A stretch of DNA of 6,463 nucleotides, from assembly GCA_007136585.1 (NCBI GenBank), contig SLGR01000066.1, positions 1-6,463 on the forward strand, written 5' to 3'. The stretch is from Candidatus Sumerlaeota bacterium. Lineage in GTDB: Bacteria > CG03 > SLGR01. Within the stretch, counting starts at the first letter, position 1. The number at the start of each line of letters is the position of its first letter. Under the pieces are notes generated by a model, which was given only the letters and a program-made list of their open reading frames with translations, had not been told where the DNA came from and did not search any database. Made by a program: the position numbers and the translations under genes. Positions 3 to 6,463 of the stretch are shown piece by piece.

Positions 3-3000
3 GATTTTGAGGAGTCGCTCAGGCTGGAATCCGAGGACAGGTACCAAGAGAGGCTGGGGGTAGTCTCGGAGCTTATTGAGAAACTTGACGGTATGTATTT
101 TCAGCATTCCTTTAAAGTCGCCGCCCTGGCCTTTCTTATAGCCTCGGAGATGGGGCTTGACCGGGAATTCGCCGGGCTTATTTATGATGCGGCCCTTCTT
201 CACGACGCCGGAAAAACCCTGCCCGGGATAAAGCGGCTTGTATCCGGCAAAAAGAATATAGGTTCCCGGGAGTTTGAGGTAATAAAAAGACATACCCTGA
301 AAGGGGCAAGGCTCCTTGAGAGTTACGGGATGCCGGATTATTTTATCTCTGCCGCCAGGGACCATCACGAGAGATGGATGGGAGAGGGGTACCCCGACGG
401 GGTAAGCCGGAAAGAAGTCCCGCTTATCGCCAGGATAATAGCCGTCGCCGATGTCCTGGAGGCGATAACCGCCGAGAGGCCCGGATCCGTCCCGGAATCC
501 CTTGAGTACGCGCTGAATTATATAGAAGAAAATAAAGGAAGTCTTTTTGATCCTGAAATTATTGAGGCACTCGGGCGGGTAGACTTACTGAAAATGCGCA
601 GAGTGATTTACGCGGAAGTAAGCGTCGCAACCGGTGACGAAACTGACCCTGAGACGGTCATAGAGAGACTCTCCGATGAGGGGCTGCTTACACCCGGTGA
701 CGCGGATCACCTGAGGAGCCTTGCCGAAAAGACCGATTCCCCCGGGGCGATGGCAGCCCTTCTTGAGGAGCTTATCCGGGAGGGGTACCTGGTTACAGGC
801 GATATTGAGATACTTGATTCCATAGCGGAGATGACCCATCTTCCCGATGCCCTGGAGATAATACTGGATATAGAGACCCTCTTTGATAGCGGGAAAATTT
901 CCAGGGAAAACCTGCCGCATTTTATAAACCTTCTTGGTATAACTGAAGTGGATTACGATGAGGCCCTGGAGATGATATCGGAGATGAAAACAGAGATAAA
1001 GGGTCTGGAAAAGGTCTCCATAAGCAGGGGTCCGTTAAGCAGGGTAAAGAACCTGAGGACCCGGGAGCTTTCTCCCGGGGAGGAAGAGACCGTATGGGGC
1101 GCCGTATCCGGGATAATGCGGGAGGCCTCAGAGAGCGGGGATATCTTTCTCGAGAGAACCGCATCGGCTCTGGGTCGGTACCTCGCAAGGGGCGATATAG
1201 CGGTTTTTGAGGGAGATTTTATTGACAGGGATAACTATATACTAGCGGAGATGTGCGGGGAGAGGCTCCTTCTTTCCACAGAGGTGCTTCAGAGCCGCTC
1301 CTTCAGAAGCGTGATGCAAGAGCTTCTCCTTCACCTTGGGGGGTGCGATATGACTCCTTCCGTAGCAGAGAAAATATCTTCATATGTAAGGAGTAAATCC
1401 CTGTGGGGGTTTGGCGGAAAGATATTCCGGTCTGTATTAAGGATCTTAACCGGCCGCCCTCTCTTCAGGCGTCTCACTGCGCCTGAGATGACGCATTATT
1501 ATACCCGCAGGTCAGCGGAGAGGGATACGGGTGTTATCTATATACACGGGAAAGGGGAACTTGAGCTGGCCTTTGCTGTAGGGAAAAAACTGCATTTTAT
1601 GGAAAGGCCGGGAGGGGCTGACCTGACAGAGTTTTCAATGAGACTGGCGGAGAGTTTTGATGTTCTTATGGTCTCTCATACTATGCTTGACCGTATATTT
1701 AAGACAGCCTCCCTGGGCCTTGAAGAGAATATGAGGAGGTACGTCTACCCCGCGCTCAACCGTATATTCAACAGAAAGGGTGTCCTTTCGGATAAGAAGA
1801 CCGTGGTTCCCGTGGGTAACAGTATGGGCGGGCTTTTTACCAGTCTGGGCGTATCAGAGTTTTTTATTGACACCGAAGGCAGCCTCAAACCCGAAACCTA
1901 TGATCCGGGTATCGGGACCGTTGTTCTTATAAACCCCGCCCTGAACGGGCTCTCAAGGTTTGCGATGAACTGGATGAAGTTTACTCTTCAGTACCTTTTC
2001 TGGCGCATATACGGGGTTGTGACCGGGAGCGAACCGCTTCTTGCGGGTCTCTGGGTAAGGGACGGGGCCCTGGGTGAAGCTCAGGAGAGAATGAGAACCG
2101 CCGCCGCCCATAAAAACTTTCCGTATATTATAACCGTGGGGATGGAGACCGGCGACGTGCCACGGCTTCCCCTTGGGCTTCACAGGAACAGGATAGTAAG
2201 GGAAGCGCTGAACCTTATCGGGTTGAGCGGAAAAGATGATACTATAGTTGATCCTGACGGCGTGAGAGGTTTGGGGCGGGACGGAAAACCTCTTTTCCCG
2301 GGGAGGTACACACCGATAATCATAAGGGGTCTTTCACACGGCCGGTACAAAGAAAACCTTCCCGCCTCTCTTGCGGAGCGGCTTGTAGAGCTCACCGCTA
2401 AAGAACTCCCCGCATCCCGGATAGAGGCGGTTGTAAACGGTGTATCCAAGGGAGCGCTTACCTCTTACGGGCCTGAGAACCCCCTCTATGTTGATAAAGA
2501 TGATAAGGTCGAGCTTATTGAGATAGCGGAAACCCCGGCGGACCGGAATGTTACTGTAAATAAAACCCGACATCCTGAGAAGCTATCTTTCTCCGTAAAG
2601 AAGACAGAAGGGAGATGGGAAGATCTTCCGTCAGAGAAGGCCTGGGCGGTTATCCTTGATTATTATCTTTCCCGTATGAGTCGCTCGGGAGAGTTAAGCC
2701 CGGAAAGAGAGCATATAGCTCTCACGCCGGATATGCCGGAGTTACTTGAGAAGGTATCAGCCGATTACGGTCTCAGTACTGTGGAACTCCCCGCGGGGCA
2801 CCTGGAGTCGTATTCTGACGTGGACGCGCTTTTCGGGTTCGGCCCGGGAATACTCCTTATGAGGGGGCGCAGGGTCAGTCCCCTTGAGCTTATCTATGAT
2901 ATTATTGACGAGAACCCTGCTGCTGTCACTGAGATCCTTGATGAAATTTACCTTCGCCACGGGTATTATGCCCTCCGGGAGCATATAATGGAATTTCCCG

Positions 3001-4076
3001 GCAGCAGGGAACTGAATATGTTTATTGAAGCGATAAGAAGTAGTGAGAGAGTCGCTGAGGTAAGAGAAGGCGAGCCTCTGAGCGGGCTGATTCTTGAAGC
3101 GGTACTGAAGGACAGGGCGGTTATAAGGCTCTCCCGTGTTTCGGAATCCGGATTCGTAAGGGTTTCCGGGCATCTGAGCGCGCCTGCGTCGGAACTCCGG
3201 GAACTTGAGGGGGTAAAGGCTTCGGCTGACGTATCGCTTGACGAATCAATGGATGTGTTACTGGCCGTATACGGGAAATACCCCGGTGTTGAAGATATTT
3301 TTGAAGAATTTGAAGCTGTCAGGGGCCCCGACGGAGAAAGAACCGGGTTTAAAGACGGAAAACTTATCATAGAGCCGCGGAAGTACGACCTGCTCAATGA
3401 GATCAGCCGGACTCCTGAAGGAGAGGGACTGGCCTCCGACCTTCTAAAAATAATAGCGGCTTACGAAAGGAGCAGGACCCGCGCAGGGGTTACAGGCGAT
3501 ATTGACAGGCTCTATCTGCAGGAGCTTAAAGGTATGGGCCTGGAGGAAGGGCTTGACGCGATAGCGCTTCCTGTCTTTTTCAACGATTTCCTTCCGTTTC
3601 TTATTTCAGGTGAATTCCCCGGCTCCTCCGAGATAAAGGCGAGGCTTGATGAGGTCTTCAGCAGGGAAGATTATATTTCCCTTTCGGATTATTACAAAGG
3701 GGCCTTTACAGGTCGCGTTCTTACCCATATGGAGAGGTTCCTGGGAGAGAAACGCAGGGTCGCCGATACCTCCGGGACGGGGTATGTGAAAGCCGAGGAT
3801 ATCATAGACGGGTATTCCGAAACCGTATCAGGAGTTGCTCATCTTGTAAGGGCGGTCAGCGTCCTTGCTCTTCCTGTCGCGCCCCTTGCCGCGGTTTCCG
3901 GAGGTGTCTTCAACGGTTACGATGCCCTGAGGGCCCAGGATATCCTTATTCCTTCCGGTCTTGATATAGGGCGTCGCCTGCAACTGTTTATCACGGACAT
4001 TCTCGGTGGAGGAAGAGGCGGGCTTGCAGAGGGTATAAACGCCGTTAAAATAACCAATATCCTTTCCGCCAACTGA
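3..4076 (+). CDS. Large multidomain protein: HD-GYP phosphodiesterase domain, helical repeats, alpha/beta hydrolase and unassigned C-terminal region (5' partial)
   Basis: The frame is open from base 3, so the true start lies to the left. The first in-frame ATG (93) is not a credible start: it has no Shine-Dalgarno and sits four residues before the first HD-GYP metal histidine. Residues below count from that ATG. Residues 1-165 form an HD-GYP domain: H5, HD 37-38 with K41, H67, HH 91-92, GYP 99-101, D120. Such domains hydrolyse cyclic di-GMP in the cytoplasm using a metal centre. Residues 187-292 hold about three helical repeats. Residues 293-479 are unassigned. Residues 480-770 read as an alpha/beta hydrolase: HG 485-486 after a hydrophobic strand, nucleophile elbow GNSMGG with S577, likely acid D688 in TGDVP, and likely base H749 in LSHG; its substrate is unknown. 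Residues 771-1327 match no family I recognise and include a hydrophobic stretch at 1249-1273. No signal peptide is visible in the part present. The gene ends in tandem stops, TGA TAA. I am sure of the gene and the HD-GYP call, fairly sure of the hydrolase, and do not know the overall role. Confidence 0.8.
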   Translation, partial: DFEESLRLESEDRYQERLGVVSELIEKLDGMYFQHSFKVAALAFLIASEMGLDREFAGLIYDAALLHDAGKTLPGIKRLVSGKKNIGSREFEVIKRHTLKGARLLESYGMPDYFISAARDHHERWMGEGYPDGVSRKEVPLIARIIAVADVLEAITAERPGSVPESLEYALNYIEENKGSLFDPEIIEALGRVDLLKMRRVIYAEVSVATGDETDPETVIERLSDEGLLTPGDADHLRSLAEKTDSPGAMAALLEELIREGYLVTGDIEILDSIAEMTHLPDALEIILDIETLFDSGKISRENLPHFINLLGITEVDYDEALEMISEMKTEIKGLEKVSISRGPLSRVKNLRTRELSPGEEETVWGAVSGIMREASESGDIFLERTASALGRYLARGDIAVFEGDFIDRDNYILAEMCGERLLLSTEVLQSRSFRSVMQELLLHLGGCDMTPSVAEKISSYVRSKSLWGFGGKIFRSVLRILTGRPLFRRLTAPEMTHYYTRRSAERDTGVIYIHGKGELELAFAVGKKLHFMERPGGADLTEFSMRLAESFDVLMVSHTMLDRIFKTASLGLEENMRRYVYPALNRIFNRKGVLSDKKTVVPVGNSMGGLFTSLGVSEFFIDTEGSLKPETYDPGIGTVVLINPALNGLSRFAMNWMKFTLQYLFWRIYGVVTGSEPLLAGLWVRDGALGEAQERMRTAAAHKNFPYIITVGMETGDVPRLPLGLHRNRIVREALNLIGLSGKDDTIVDPDGVRGLGRDGKPLFPGRYTPIIIRGLSHGRYKENLPASLAERLVELTAKELPASRIEAVVNGVSKGALTSYGPENPLYVDKDDKVELIEIAETPADRNVTVNKTRHPEKLSFSVKKTEGRWEDLPSEKAWAVILDYYLSRMSRSGELSPEREHIALTPDMPELLEKVSADYGLSTVELPAGHLESYSDVDALFGFGPGILLMRGRRVSPLELIYDIIDENPAAVTEILDEIYLRHGYYALREHIMEFPGSRELNMFIEAIRSSERVAEVREGEPLSGLILEAVLKDRAVIRLSRVSESGFVRVSGHLSAPASELRELEGVKASADVSLDESMDVLLAVYGKYPGVEDIFEEFEAVRGPDGERTGFKDGKLIIEPRKYDLLNEISRTPEGEGLASDLLKIIAAYERSRTRAGVTGDIDRLYLQELKGMGLEEGLDAIALPVFFNDFLPFLISGEFPGSSEIKARLDEVFSREDYISLSDYYKGAFTGRVLTHMERFLGEKRRVADTSGTGYVKAEDIIDGYSETVSGVAHLVRAVSVLALPVAPLAAVSGGVFNGYDALRAQDILIPSGLDIGRRLQLFITDILGGGRGGLAEGINAVKITNILSAN
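651..968 (+). repeat. Tandem protein repeats of about 34 residues inside the HD-GYP protein
   Basis: Immediately after the HD-GYP domain, residues 187-220 and 221-254 (counted from the ATG at 93) align without gaps and share 14 of 34 residues. The shared positions include a Glu-Gly pair, GD, Ser, Ala-Glu, Thr, Pro and Ala, with leucines between. A weaker third copy covers about 255-292, with the same 17-residue spacing from its Gly to its Thr but extra residues near the end. The pattern suggests paired helices separated by a G-x-(L/I) turn, as in a small solenoid or a helical linker. The repeats are seen directly; the fold is inferred. I do not recognise a named repeat family. Confidence 0.6.
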
Positions 4077-4118: not shown

Positions 4119-4147
4119 TTTAAAAAGAGACCGTGTTAAGTTATAAT
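4119..4147 (+). promoter_or_regulatory. Candidate sigma-70-type promoter for the ftsH-lipoprotein unit
   Basis: A perfect -10 hexamer TATAAT (4142-4147) lies 17 bases downstream of TTTAAA (4119-4124), which matches the -35 consensus TTGACA at four of six positions. Transcription would begin near 4153-4155, leaving a leader of about 57 bases before the ATG at 4212. It is the only good promoter candidate in the gap between the first and second genes. Consensus-like hexamers can occur by chance in AT-rich stretches, so this remains a prediction. Confidence 0.6.
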
Positions 4148-4211: not shown

Positions 4212-5861
4212 ATGAACAGAAAAACTAAAATGTTCTGGATGCTGAACAAGGTCAAGATAATAATTGTCATTGTTTTGGCGAGTCTTATTTTTTCGGCGGT
4301 AGCCGGTATGCTATCCGTGGAGTCTTTTTATAGAAGGCTTACGGTAGCGCAGATGCCCATGAACCTTATAATGGCCGGGTTCTCCGCCGTTGTATTTGTA
4401 TCAATGTATTCTATTTTCCTGAGAGGTGGGATGTCCAGAATAAGCCAGGACAAGATAAAAGGTGAGAGCGTTAACGTAAAATGGGACGATGTCATAGGCA
4501 TAGAAGAGGTCAAGGAGGAGGCCCAGGAGGTTGTCGAGCTCATAAAGGACCGAACAAGGATCACAAAGATCGGCGGACGGATACTTAGGGGTCTTCTTAT
4601 GATCGGGCCTCCGGGGTGCGGTAAGACACTCCTTGCCAAGGCCATAGCCACCGAAGCGGGCATACCTTTTATATCAATGGCCGCAAGCGAGTTTAATGAG
4701 ATTTTTGTGGGTGTCGGGTCAAGCAAGGTCAGGAAACTTTTCAAGAAAGCGAGGATAATGGCCTACGGTTACGGGGCCAGTATTATATTTGTTGATGAGA
4801 TTGACGCTATCGGGCGCCAGAGGTCCTTTTCCTTCGGAAGCGGCCAGGAGACCAACAATACCCTGAACCAGCTTCTTGTTGAGATGGACGGACTGAAAGA
4901 GGATGACCTCAGCATTATTGTTATTGGAGCGACAAACGCCAGTGAATCGGTTATAGATCCCGCTCTTTTAAGGCCCGGAAGGTTTGACCGTAAACTCTAT
5001 ATCGGAAGACCCGGGCTGGACGGGCGTGAGGATCTCTTTAAATACTACCTGTCAAAGATAAACTACGACCCTGATATTGATGTCTCCCGACTTGCCCGCA
5101 AGGCCGTGTATAAGTCACCGGCCGATATTGAGAATATAGTTAAGGAGGCGGCGCTTATAGCAACCAGGGAAGGGAAGGATATAGTTGAGCATAAGGAAAT
5201 ATCCGCTGCCATTGAGCGCATAGATATGGGTATAAAGCATAAGCGAAAGATGACTGAACAGGAGAGAAAACGGGTTGCCTACCACGAATCGGGTCATCTT
5301 ATGGTTCTTTGCTTTCTGCACCCGACTGATGATGTATTTAAAGCCTCAATTGTATCCAGGAAAGATACCCTGGGGGCCGTCTATCACCAGCCCCGGGAAG
5401 AGCTTTTTACCAGTGACAGGGACCATCTTCTTGCCAATATACAGGTAGCCCTGGGAGGGTATGTGGCGGAGAAACTTGTTTTCGGTGTAACCTCTAACGG
5501 GGTCTCCGGGGATTTTCAGAAGGCAATGGCCGAGACCCATAATATGGTCTGGAAATTCGGTATGGGCGGGAACGGTTTCATAGGAGATTTTACTGTGATA
5601 CCTCCGGAACAGCTCTCTGAAAGGACCAAGGACGATCTCAATAAAGAAGAGATGCTTATCTTTAAGAACTGCTACAAGGAAGTTGAAAGGCTTCTCAGCA
5701 GCGAGAGGGCCCTCCTGGATGAGTTTGCCAGTAAACTGCTTGAAAAAGAGGAGCTGGAGTATGATGAGATTGAAGAGATATTCCATTCCTATGTCCCGTC
5801 GTCAAAAAAATCCTTAAGGAAAAAGCTGGAGGCCGAAAAAAAAGAACACCCCACCGGGTAA
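4212..5861 (+). CDS. ftsH: FtsH-type ATP-dependent zinc metalloprotease with a minimal extracytoplasmic loop
   Basis: FtsH is a hexameric inner-membrane protease that unfolds membrane and soluble proteins with its AAA+ ring and cuts them in a zinc chamber facing the cytoplasm. Two hydrophobic helices occupy residues about 15-34 and 51-70. The AAA+ module shows Walker A GPPGCGKT (132-139), the pore motif FVG (165-167), Walker B IIFVDEID (191-198), sensor residue N242, and arginine fingers R254 and R257 in LLRPGRFDR. The protease module has the zinc motif HESGH (358-362), with E359 as catalytic base, and D434 in the position of the third zinc ligand. At 549 residues it is shorter than E. coli FtsH (644), mainly because the stretch between the membrane helices is about 16 residues rather than about 70. 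The P-loop has Cys where Thr is usual, and the zinc motif has Ser where Ala is usual; neither should destroy activity. The tail is lysine-rich. The start at 4212 follows an in-frame stop at 4203. The next gene starts on the base after its stop. Confidence 0.95.
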
Positions 5862-6463
5862 ATGAAGTTCTTAATCCCGGTTGCGTTTATACTGTTTTTA
5901 TCCGGATGCGGGGTAACCTACCCTGAGGGAGAACTGCTGGAGAGCATTGACCGCATACTCTCCGTTGAATACTCTATAGAAGATGTAAGGACAGCAAGAG
6001 AGGGAGGTTCACTCTGGTTTCACGTGCCTGTTAAAAGGATATTCAACCGTGAGCTTGAGCTCCACGAGGATCTCATAAAAAAACTCCGGAACGTCTCGCT
6101 TACCGCAACCCGGGTTTTCCTGAGTTCCGATGCTGATATTGAATTCTTCTGTATGTACATCTTTTCCGAAGACGGTATGGAGCTCAGAATGATCAGGCAC
6201 ACAGAGGATGTGGAGAAGGCCAGGATGTGGTACATTTCGCAGGAATCCCTGCAGCTTCGGTCAAAGACATCCATTGATTATAACCCTGTAGTTCTCGGTG
6301 AAAAAGCGGTGAAAAATATGGCCGGGGCGGATCCTGGGGATATACGAAATTACCTTAAAGATGATAAAAGGGATGATATAATAAGGTATATACCCGGGTT
6401 TGAGGAGATCGAGAGACTTAAATCCCGCCGAATCGCTGATGACAGAGCCCTGATTTACGCCGA
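5862..6463 (+). CDS. Predicted lipoprotein of unknown function (3' partial)
   Basis: Two hundred codons are visible and the frame is open at the right edge, so the protein is longer. It begins with a short bacterial lipoprotein signal peptide: Lys at position 2, a hydrophobic core (3-13) and the lipobox LSGC (13-16), giving lipidated Cys16 after signal peptidase II cleavage. Residue 17 is Gly, not Asp, so under the E. coli sorting rule it would go to the outer membrane. The mature part is charged and mixed helix/strand: an acidic helix-like segment at 22-47, a strand-rich part at about 50-110, then a lysine/aspartate-rich segment with DDKRDD at 167-172. I recognise no family. The ATG directly follows the ftsH stop in the same frame, and the bases upstream offer only a poor Shine-Dalgarno, so translation probably depends on ribosomes finishing ftsH. 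The lipobox and the continuous open frame make a chance reading frame unlikely. Confidence 0.85.
   Translation, partial: MKFLIPVAFILFLSGCGVTYPEGELLESIDRILSVEYSIEDVRTAREGGSLWFHVPVKRIFNRELELHEDLIKKLRNVSLTATRVFLSSDADIEFFCMYIFSEDGMELRMIRHTEDVEKARMWYISQESLQLRSKTSIDYNPVVLGEKAVKNMAGADPGDIRNYLKDDKRDDIIRYIPGFEEIERLKSRRIADDRALIYA

What the first reader, a model, noticed from the sequence alone, without database searches (positions are those of the whole stretch)
3..4076. HD-GYP phosphodiesterase domain fused in one chain to an alpha/beta hydrolase and a huge unassigned region
Seen: HD-GYP motifs at residues 5-120 and a GNSMGG nucleophile elbow at 575-580 in one uninterrupted frame of at least 1357 codons. 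Known: HD-GYP domains are usually output modules of shorter regulators paired with receiver, PAS, GAF or membrane domains, and alpha/beta hydrolases are not a usual partner. Inference: cyclic-di-GMP binding or turnover could gate the hydrolase, or the HD-GYP module could act on another nucleotide. This is the best candidate in the window for an undescribed system.
Basis: partly seen in the sequence, partly recalled or inferred. Interest (0 to 1): 0.7.

Follow-up and report, generated by a model that had tools for sequence, protein, structure and literature searches.

The report
Tail of a giant capped protein
The gene is the cut-off tail of one of many giant, apparently exported bacterial proteins that carry ever-changing enzyme modules between two conserved end pieces, and that travel across genomes together with their own version of the membrane protease FtsH, which gives a first handle on how such giants are made or disposed of.

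Summary
The frame is real (1357 codons, no stop, no start before the contig edge) and the HD-GYP domain is solid. The alpha/beta hydrolase is only motif-level: Pfam E=0.1, no relatives in 386 genomes, fold model failed. That domain pairing recurs nowhere I looked, so 'c-di-GMP gates a hydrolase' is not supported.

What recurs is the protein's last ~300 aa (C-cap). It ends giant ORFs (up to 13,409 aa, mostly cut by contig ends) in four genomes of one order. Giants start with a signal-like peptide plus a conserved ~650-aa N-cap; interiors hold changing enzyme modules (SecA, pyruvate kinase, PPDK, peptidases, glycosidases). One complete 1098-aa ORF carries both caps. Giants have 9-fold fewer cysteines than ordinary ORFs, suggesting export.

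The next gene is a second FtsH, a clade apart from canonical FtsH, followed by a lipoprotein. Across 386 genomes the N-cap occurs in 17 and FtsH2 in 17; 15 are shared. Within the phylum both occur in the same 4 of 16.

Best reading: the end of one exported cap-cargo-cap giant beside its membrane protease. Giant ORFs are known in Omnitrophota-like bacteria; I found no report of the shared caps or FtsH2 coupling. Cargo function and FtsH2 action are untested.

The parts
3..4076 (+). 3' part (1357 codons plus stop) of a giant gene; 5' end lies beyond the contig edge
   Evidence: open frame without stop, no in-frame start before nt 93, window is the whole contig, first 160 nt found nowhere else in the assembly
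60..560 (+). HD-GYP module (aa 20-186), HD..GK and HH motifs kept, usual D/N of HHExxDGxGYP replaced by M
   Evidence: Pfam HD_5 7e-25; PDB 5z7c, 4mcw relatives; motif comparison
906..1508 (+). stretch (aa ~302-502) resembling parts of two other giant ORFs of the same genome (C85, C106)
   Evidence: 26-27% identity, E about 1e-5 to 1e-6
1530..2400 (+). alpha/beta-hydrolase-like module with GNSMGG elbow (nt 1815-1832); boundaries inferred
   Evidence: (Abhydrolase_6 E=0.1, nt 1791-2252), not confirmed by fold
3186..4073 (+). C-cap: conserved C-terminal domain shared by giant ORFs, ending ...NILSAN
   Evidence: AF2 core pLDDT ~90, no PDB fold match
4212..5861 (+). FtsH2: second FtsH-like AAA+ zinc protease, short extracytoplasmic part, Walker A and HESGH intact
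5862..6463 (+). lipoprotein-like gene (LSGC lipobox), cut by the contig end, constant partner of FtsH2
   Evidence: relatives directly downstream of FtsH2 in nearly all genomes examined

Best explanation
The open frame is the C-terminal end of one member of a family of giant, exported, modular proteins: signal peptide and N-cap, then a long changing series of enzyme-like modules (here HD-GYP and a hydrolase-like module among them), then a C-cap. The gene directly downstream encodes a dedicated FtsH-type membrane protease (FtsH2) with a lipoprotein partner, which I propose watches over export of the giant chains, trims them or clears stalled ones. Shown here: shared C-cap, shared N-cap, both caps in one complete ORF, modular interiors, cysteine depletion, gene order with FtsH2, co-occurrence of FtsH2 and N-cap. 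Inferred: that this particular chain had an N-cap, that the chains are outside the cytoplasm, that FtsH2 acts on them, and that the cargo works on neighbouring cells or the surroundings.
For: C-cap profile found only in 4 of 386 genomes, mostly in large ORFs (13,409 aa in G003) at or near their C-terminal end. N-cap (DLHAN / EG / GGFH motifs) follows a signal-like peptide; profile found in 17 of 386 genomes, usually in large ORFs, up to 24,620 aa. G001 ORF L109:2239-5532 (1098 aa, complete) has N-cap (E=7e-254) and C-cap (E=6e-76). Interiors: pyruvate kinase, cation efflux, SecA, M28, M23, GH65, PPDK, adenylate kinase, M3, asparaginase, protein kinase; SecA start also in an N-cap giant of another phylum. 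Module swapping: C24 and C243 are 93% identical over their last 302 aa but differ upstream. Cysteine 0.11% in 33,044 aa of own giants against 0.98% in ordinary ORFs. FtsH2 lies directly downstream of a C-cap ORF in the window and in G003:C36, and one receiver gene away in G001:C129. FtsH2 and N-cap share 15 genomes out of 17 each (naive hypergeometric P=5e-23); within the phylum the same 4 of 16. FtsH2 forms a long-branched clade apart from canonical FtsH (support 1.0).
Against: The N-terminus of this gene is not in the assembly, so N-cap and signal peptide are assumed by analogy. In other phyla FtsH2 and its lipoprotein are usually not beside a giant gene, so the coupling could reflect shared ancestry of the lineages rather than function; two genomes have N-cap without FtsH2 and two the reverse, and P-values ignore relatedness. 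Housekeeping-type enzymes (SecA, pyruvate kinase) outside the cell have no obvious substrate. No expression, export or processing data.
Confidence: 0.6

Rival explanations
1. The giants are cytosolic polyproteins: one long mRNA and chain that FtsH2 cuts into working enzymes, so HD-GYP and hydrolase are released as ordinary intracellular enzymes.
For: Interior modules look like cytosolic enzymes with kept motifs (SecA GEGKT, pyruvate kinase KIE signature, M28 ligands); a dedicated protease lies next door; the genome has nine GGDEF domains.
Against: Signal-like N-termini, 9-fold cysteine depletion, transmembrane-like segments in some interiors; the FtsH2 protease domain would be cytosolic and FtsH enzymes normally degrade processively rather than cut at sites (general knowledge).
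Confidence: 0.15
2. One reading: a c-di-GMP (or other nucleotide) sensing HD-GYP module that gates a fused alpha/beta hydrolase.
For: HD-GYP with motifs kept, GNSMGG elbow in the same chain, GGDEF genes present.
Against: Pairing not seen elsewhere; about 300 aa separate the modules; both sit in a longer chain of a family with varying cargo; likely outside the cytoplasm.
Confidence: 0.06
3. The giants are real, but FtsH2 is only a lineage marker: an FtsH paralogue carried by the same bacterial groups without acting on giants.
For: In other phyla FtsH2 plus lipoprotein mostly sits among unrelated genes, some of them RND transporters; FtsH2 without detected N-cap in G071 and G353, whose congeners G214 and G223 have both; the FtsH2 tree nests this order inside other phyla, so co-transfer in one event is possible.
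Against: Within the phylum presence is patchy yet perfectly matched: G004 has both and its congener G006 neither, G000 and G001 both and G002 of the same family neither; FtsH2 lies beside or near a C-cap giant in three of three checkable genomes of this order.
Confidence: 0.3
4. Assembly or binning artefact that merged unrelated genes, or degenerate pseudogene tracts.
For: The contig is short, ends mid-gene, and the MAG has 257 contigs.
Against: No stop in 1357 codons, fairly even GC3 (0.49-0.60) along the frame, conserved C-cap and downstream order in independent genomes, catalytic motifs kept in several cargo modules.
Confidence: 0.03

Closest known systems
Giant ORFs of Omnitrophota (PMC10066038), including the 39,678-aa protein of 'Ca. 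Velamenicoccus archaeovorus'
   Same: Very long ORFs, many per genome, in small-genome uncultured bacteria of the PVC neighbourhood; transmembrane or exported character proposed
   Different: The paper calls them poorly conserved with few annotated domains and cites a coat or predation role; here a shared N-cap across phyla, a shared C-cap within one order, enzyme-rich interiors and an FtsH2 link are seen
Large extracellular protein of 'Ca. Menyafoubacter' (PMC12057145)
   Same: Soda-lake-type bacterium, ~6000-aa secreted protein, same broad superphylum
   Different: Built of carbohydrate-binding beta-helix, Rhs and adhesin domains; no such domains were found in the giants scanned here
Canonical FtsH (TIGR01241)
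   Same: AAA+ domain, M41 zinc protease motif HExGH, two N-terminal hydrophobic stretches
   Different: FtsH2 is a separate clade, 38-42% identical to the phylum's canonical FtsH over most of the chain, about 75 residues shorter before Walker A, below the NCBIfam cut-off (462.7 of 600), and found in genomes that also have a canonical FtsH
HD-GYP regulators (PDB 4mcw, 5z7c)
   Same: HD motif and HHE..G.GYP motif
   Different: Embedded in a giant chain, no receiver, PAS or GAF domain seen, M in place of the usual D/N

Membership tests
HD-GYP phosphodiesterase | HD domain with HD..GK and HHE..G.GYP motifs | tested here: met
   one D/N to M change in the GYP motif
HD-GYP phosphodiesterase | Hydrolysis of c-di-GMP or cGAMP | not testable with these tools
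   needs enzymology
Alpha/beta hydrolase | Nucleophile elbow G-x-S-x-G | tested here: met
   GNSMGG at aa 605-610
Alpha/beta hydrolase | Profile score above curated cut-off | tested here: not met
   Abhydrolase_6 13.7 bits against 26.3
Alpha/beta hydrolase | Alpha/beta hydrolase fold | tested here: inconclusive
   single-sequence model pLDDT 34
Giant ORFs of the Omnitrophota type (>20 kb) | ORF longer than 20 kb | tested here: inconclusive
   only 4.07 kb of this gene is in the contig; a related C-cap ORF in G003 is 40 kb
Giant ORFs of the Omnitrophota type (>20 kb) | Shared domains with giants of other phyla | tested here: inconclusive
   N-cap shared across phyla, but this gene's N-terminus is missing; its C-cap is confined to one order
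FtsH (window 4212-5861) | AAA+ plus M41 HExxH and third ligand | tested here: met
FtsH (window 4212-5861) | NCBIfam TIGR01241 cut-off (600 bits) | tested here: not met
   462.7 bits

The most novel reading that the evidence does not exclude
Several uncultured phyla share a cap-cargo-cap system: giant exported chains that collect and swap whole enzymes, including housekeeping-type ones such as SecA and pyruvate kinase, between conserved ends, with a dedicated membrane FtsH2-lipoprotein pair that handles chains too long for the ordinary export and quality-control machinery.
Probability: 0.4. Interest if true: 0.82.

Novelty: new variant of a known kind. Interest (0 to 1): 0.62.

Why it matters
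Giant bacterial proteins are counted in several papers but hardly explained; they are described as poorly conserved with few annotated domains (PMC10066038). A conserved N-cap, an order-specific C-cap and a protease that travels with the N-cap give sequence handles for finding, sorting and testing them: where they go, how they are exported, and what clears them. It also removes a false lead, since HD-GYP and hydrolase here are two of many modules rather than a signalling pair.

Tried and rejected
Whole-protein scan of genome contigs found nothing. Linking the cut 5' end to another contig by shared end sequence: no second copy. Relatives of the hydrolase region in the phylum and in 386 genomes: none; by PDB sequence: only chance-level hits. 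AlphaFold2 of the hydrolase region: failed. C-cap fold in PDB: no match; C-cap and N-cap profiles against PDB sequences and N-cap against Pfam: nothing credible. N-cap motifs (DLHAN, EG, GGFH) recall the TIKI/ChaN/erythromycin-esterase group, but this is memory only and no profile supported it. Names of the other-phylum genomes could not be read; Omnitrophota is a guess. The paper on 'Ca. Velamenicoccus' (PMC9004380) was not held and neither are bioRxiv preprints, including the giant-genes preprint cited in PMC12057145, so prior description of the caps or of FtsH2 cannot be excluded.
Full report
Observation. The window is the whole of contig C195 (6463 nt) of a MAG of 1.88 Mb in 257 contigs. 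The + frame 3-4076 has 1357 codons without a stop and is open at its 5' end. No start codon lies in frame before nt 93, which is inside the HD domain's span, so the gene begins beyond the contig. HD-GYP is confirmed at aa 20-186, closest among solved structures to cGAMP and c-di-GMP phosphodiesterases. The usual D or N in HHExxDGxGYP is M; the HD..GK and HH residues are kept. The hydrolase is suggested only by GNSMGG (aa 605-610) and by Abhydrolase_6 at E=0.1 in the right place; no relatives were found in 386 genomes and the single-sequence model failed.

The shared tail. The last ~250-300 aa recur at the C-termini of other large ORFs in the same genome, in contigs carrying pyruvate kinase and a cation-efflux domain (C123), M23 (C150), a cytidylyltransferase-like domain (C24), M28 (C243), and SecA plus glycosidase-like domains (C226). 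They end in similar letters (NILYAN, HILYAK, NILSAN). A profile of this C-cap finds 11 places in G000, 12 in G001, 2 in G003 and 5 in G004, and none in the other 12 genomes of the phylum; a wider profile finds it in the same 4 of 386 genomes. Open frames reach 13,409 aa; most run off contig ends. AlphaFold2 with 24 sequences gives a helical core at pLDDT ~90 and a poorly predicted tail, with no match in PDB.

The shared head. Large ORFs in these genomes begin with a signal-like peptide followed by a conserved ~650-aa N-cap with invariant D-x-H-x-N, E-G and G-G-F-H residues. One complete ORF of 1098 aa in G001 (L109:2239-5532) has both caps, which ties them together. The N-cap profile finds 17 of 386 genomes, 13 of them outside the phylum, usually in large ORFs (up to 24,620 aa); in those fetched it sits at the N-terminus. 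Whether the window's gene has an N-cap cannot be seen.

Interiors. Modules identified in giants of the window's genome and order include SecA, pyruvate kinase, PPDK, adenylate kinase, M3, M23 and M28 peptidases, GH65, GH130, alpha-amylase, PLD, a UPF1-like helicase, asparaginase and a protein kinase; not all of these ORFs show a cap, because contigs end. Several keep catalytic motifs. An N-cap giant of another phylum also runs into a SecA domain at its contig end. Near-identical ends joined to different interiors (C24 and C243, 93% over 302 aa) show module exchange. Six of forty contigs sampled from the genome lie wholly inside one ORF.

Likely location. Own giants contain 0.11% cysteine over 33,044 aa; 98 ordinary ORFs contain 0.98%. 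Together with signal-like N-termini this favours an extracytoplasmic place, by inference. The ordinary ORFs were taken stop to stop and not curated.

The FtsH neighbour. Window 4212-5861 encodes a second FtsH (549 aa) with Walker A and HESGH intact. It is 77-80% identical in exactly the four C-cap genomes of the phylum; elsewhere in the phylum only canonical FtsH at about 40% was found. In the window and in G003:C36 it directly follows a C-cap giant, in G001:C129 after one receiver-domain gene; in G004 the contig starts just before it. A lipoprotein-like gene follows it in all four. Across 386 genomes FtsH2 (51% identity or more) is in 17, N-cap in 17, both in 15 (naive P=5e-23). FtsH2 proteins form one clade, well apart from canonical FtsH, with this order nested inside those of other phyla, which suggests transfer into it. 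In other phyla FtsH2 plus lipoprotein is seldom beside a giant. The counts ignore relatedness, so a functional tie is plausible but unproved.

Organism. The phylum name in current taxonomy was not established; CG03 is a possibility raised by PMC12057145, where giant genes in CG03 are mentioned. Genomes of the order with giants are larger (1.9-2.5 Mb) than those without (1.0-1.6 Mb) (table).

Known and new. Giant ORFs over 20 kb are reported as common in Omnitrophota, poorly conserved, with few annotated domains and proposed predatory or adhesive roles (PMC10066038). A large secreted protein is reported from a related saline-lake bacterium (PMC12057145). I found no paper linking such giants to FtsH or SecA, but key papers were not held. 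I rate this a new variant of a known kind.

The fused chain is real; the gated-hydrolase idea is not supported. The window is better read as the end of one giant capped protein beside a protease that accompanies such proteins.

Noticed in passing
L102:1055-1789 -, L115:5503-6246 -, L031:2639-3412 +: A ~245-aa receiver-domain-like protein (KILVVEDEEIIASMVKDNLEARGY) recurs between giant genes.
   Followed up: partly
L102:1793-2329 -, L104:62-724 -, L109:1680-2291 + and 5563-6096 +, L111:1411-1989 +, L032:3612-4211 +, G003:C25 35565-36170 -: A ~180-200-aa protein with an N-terminal hydrophobic stretch and a DEYDINP motif lies between giant genes (alignment A4); function unknown.
   Followed up: partly
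L196, L202, L208, L209, L116: RND-transporter-like genes, most with very little cysteine, lie near FtsH2 in several genomes of other phyla and in G003.
   Followed up: no
G001:C9, C87, C142 starts: Contigs begin at closely similar N-cap stretches of different giants, so assemblies probably break at repeats shared by giant paralogues.
   Followed up: partly
window 4119-4147: Promoter-like TTTAAA-17-TATAAT in the gap before FtsH2; consensus match only.
   Followed up: no
L109:2239-5532 +: Smallest complete ORF with both caps (1098 aa) and little room for cargo; a convenient model protein.
   Followed up: partly
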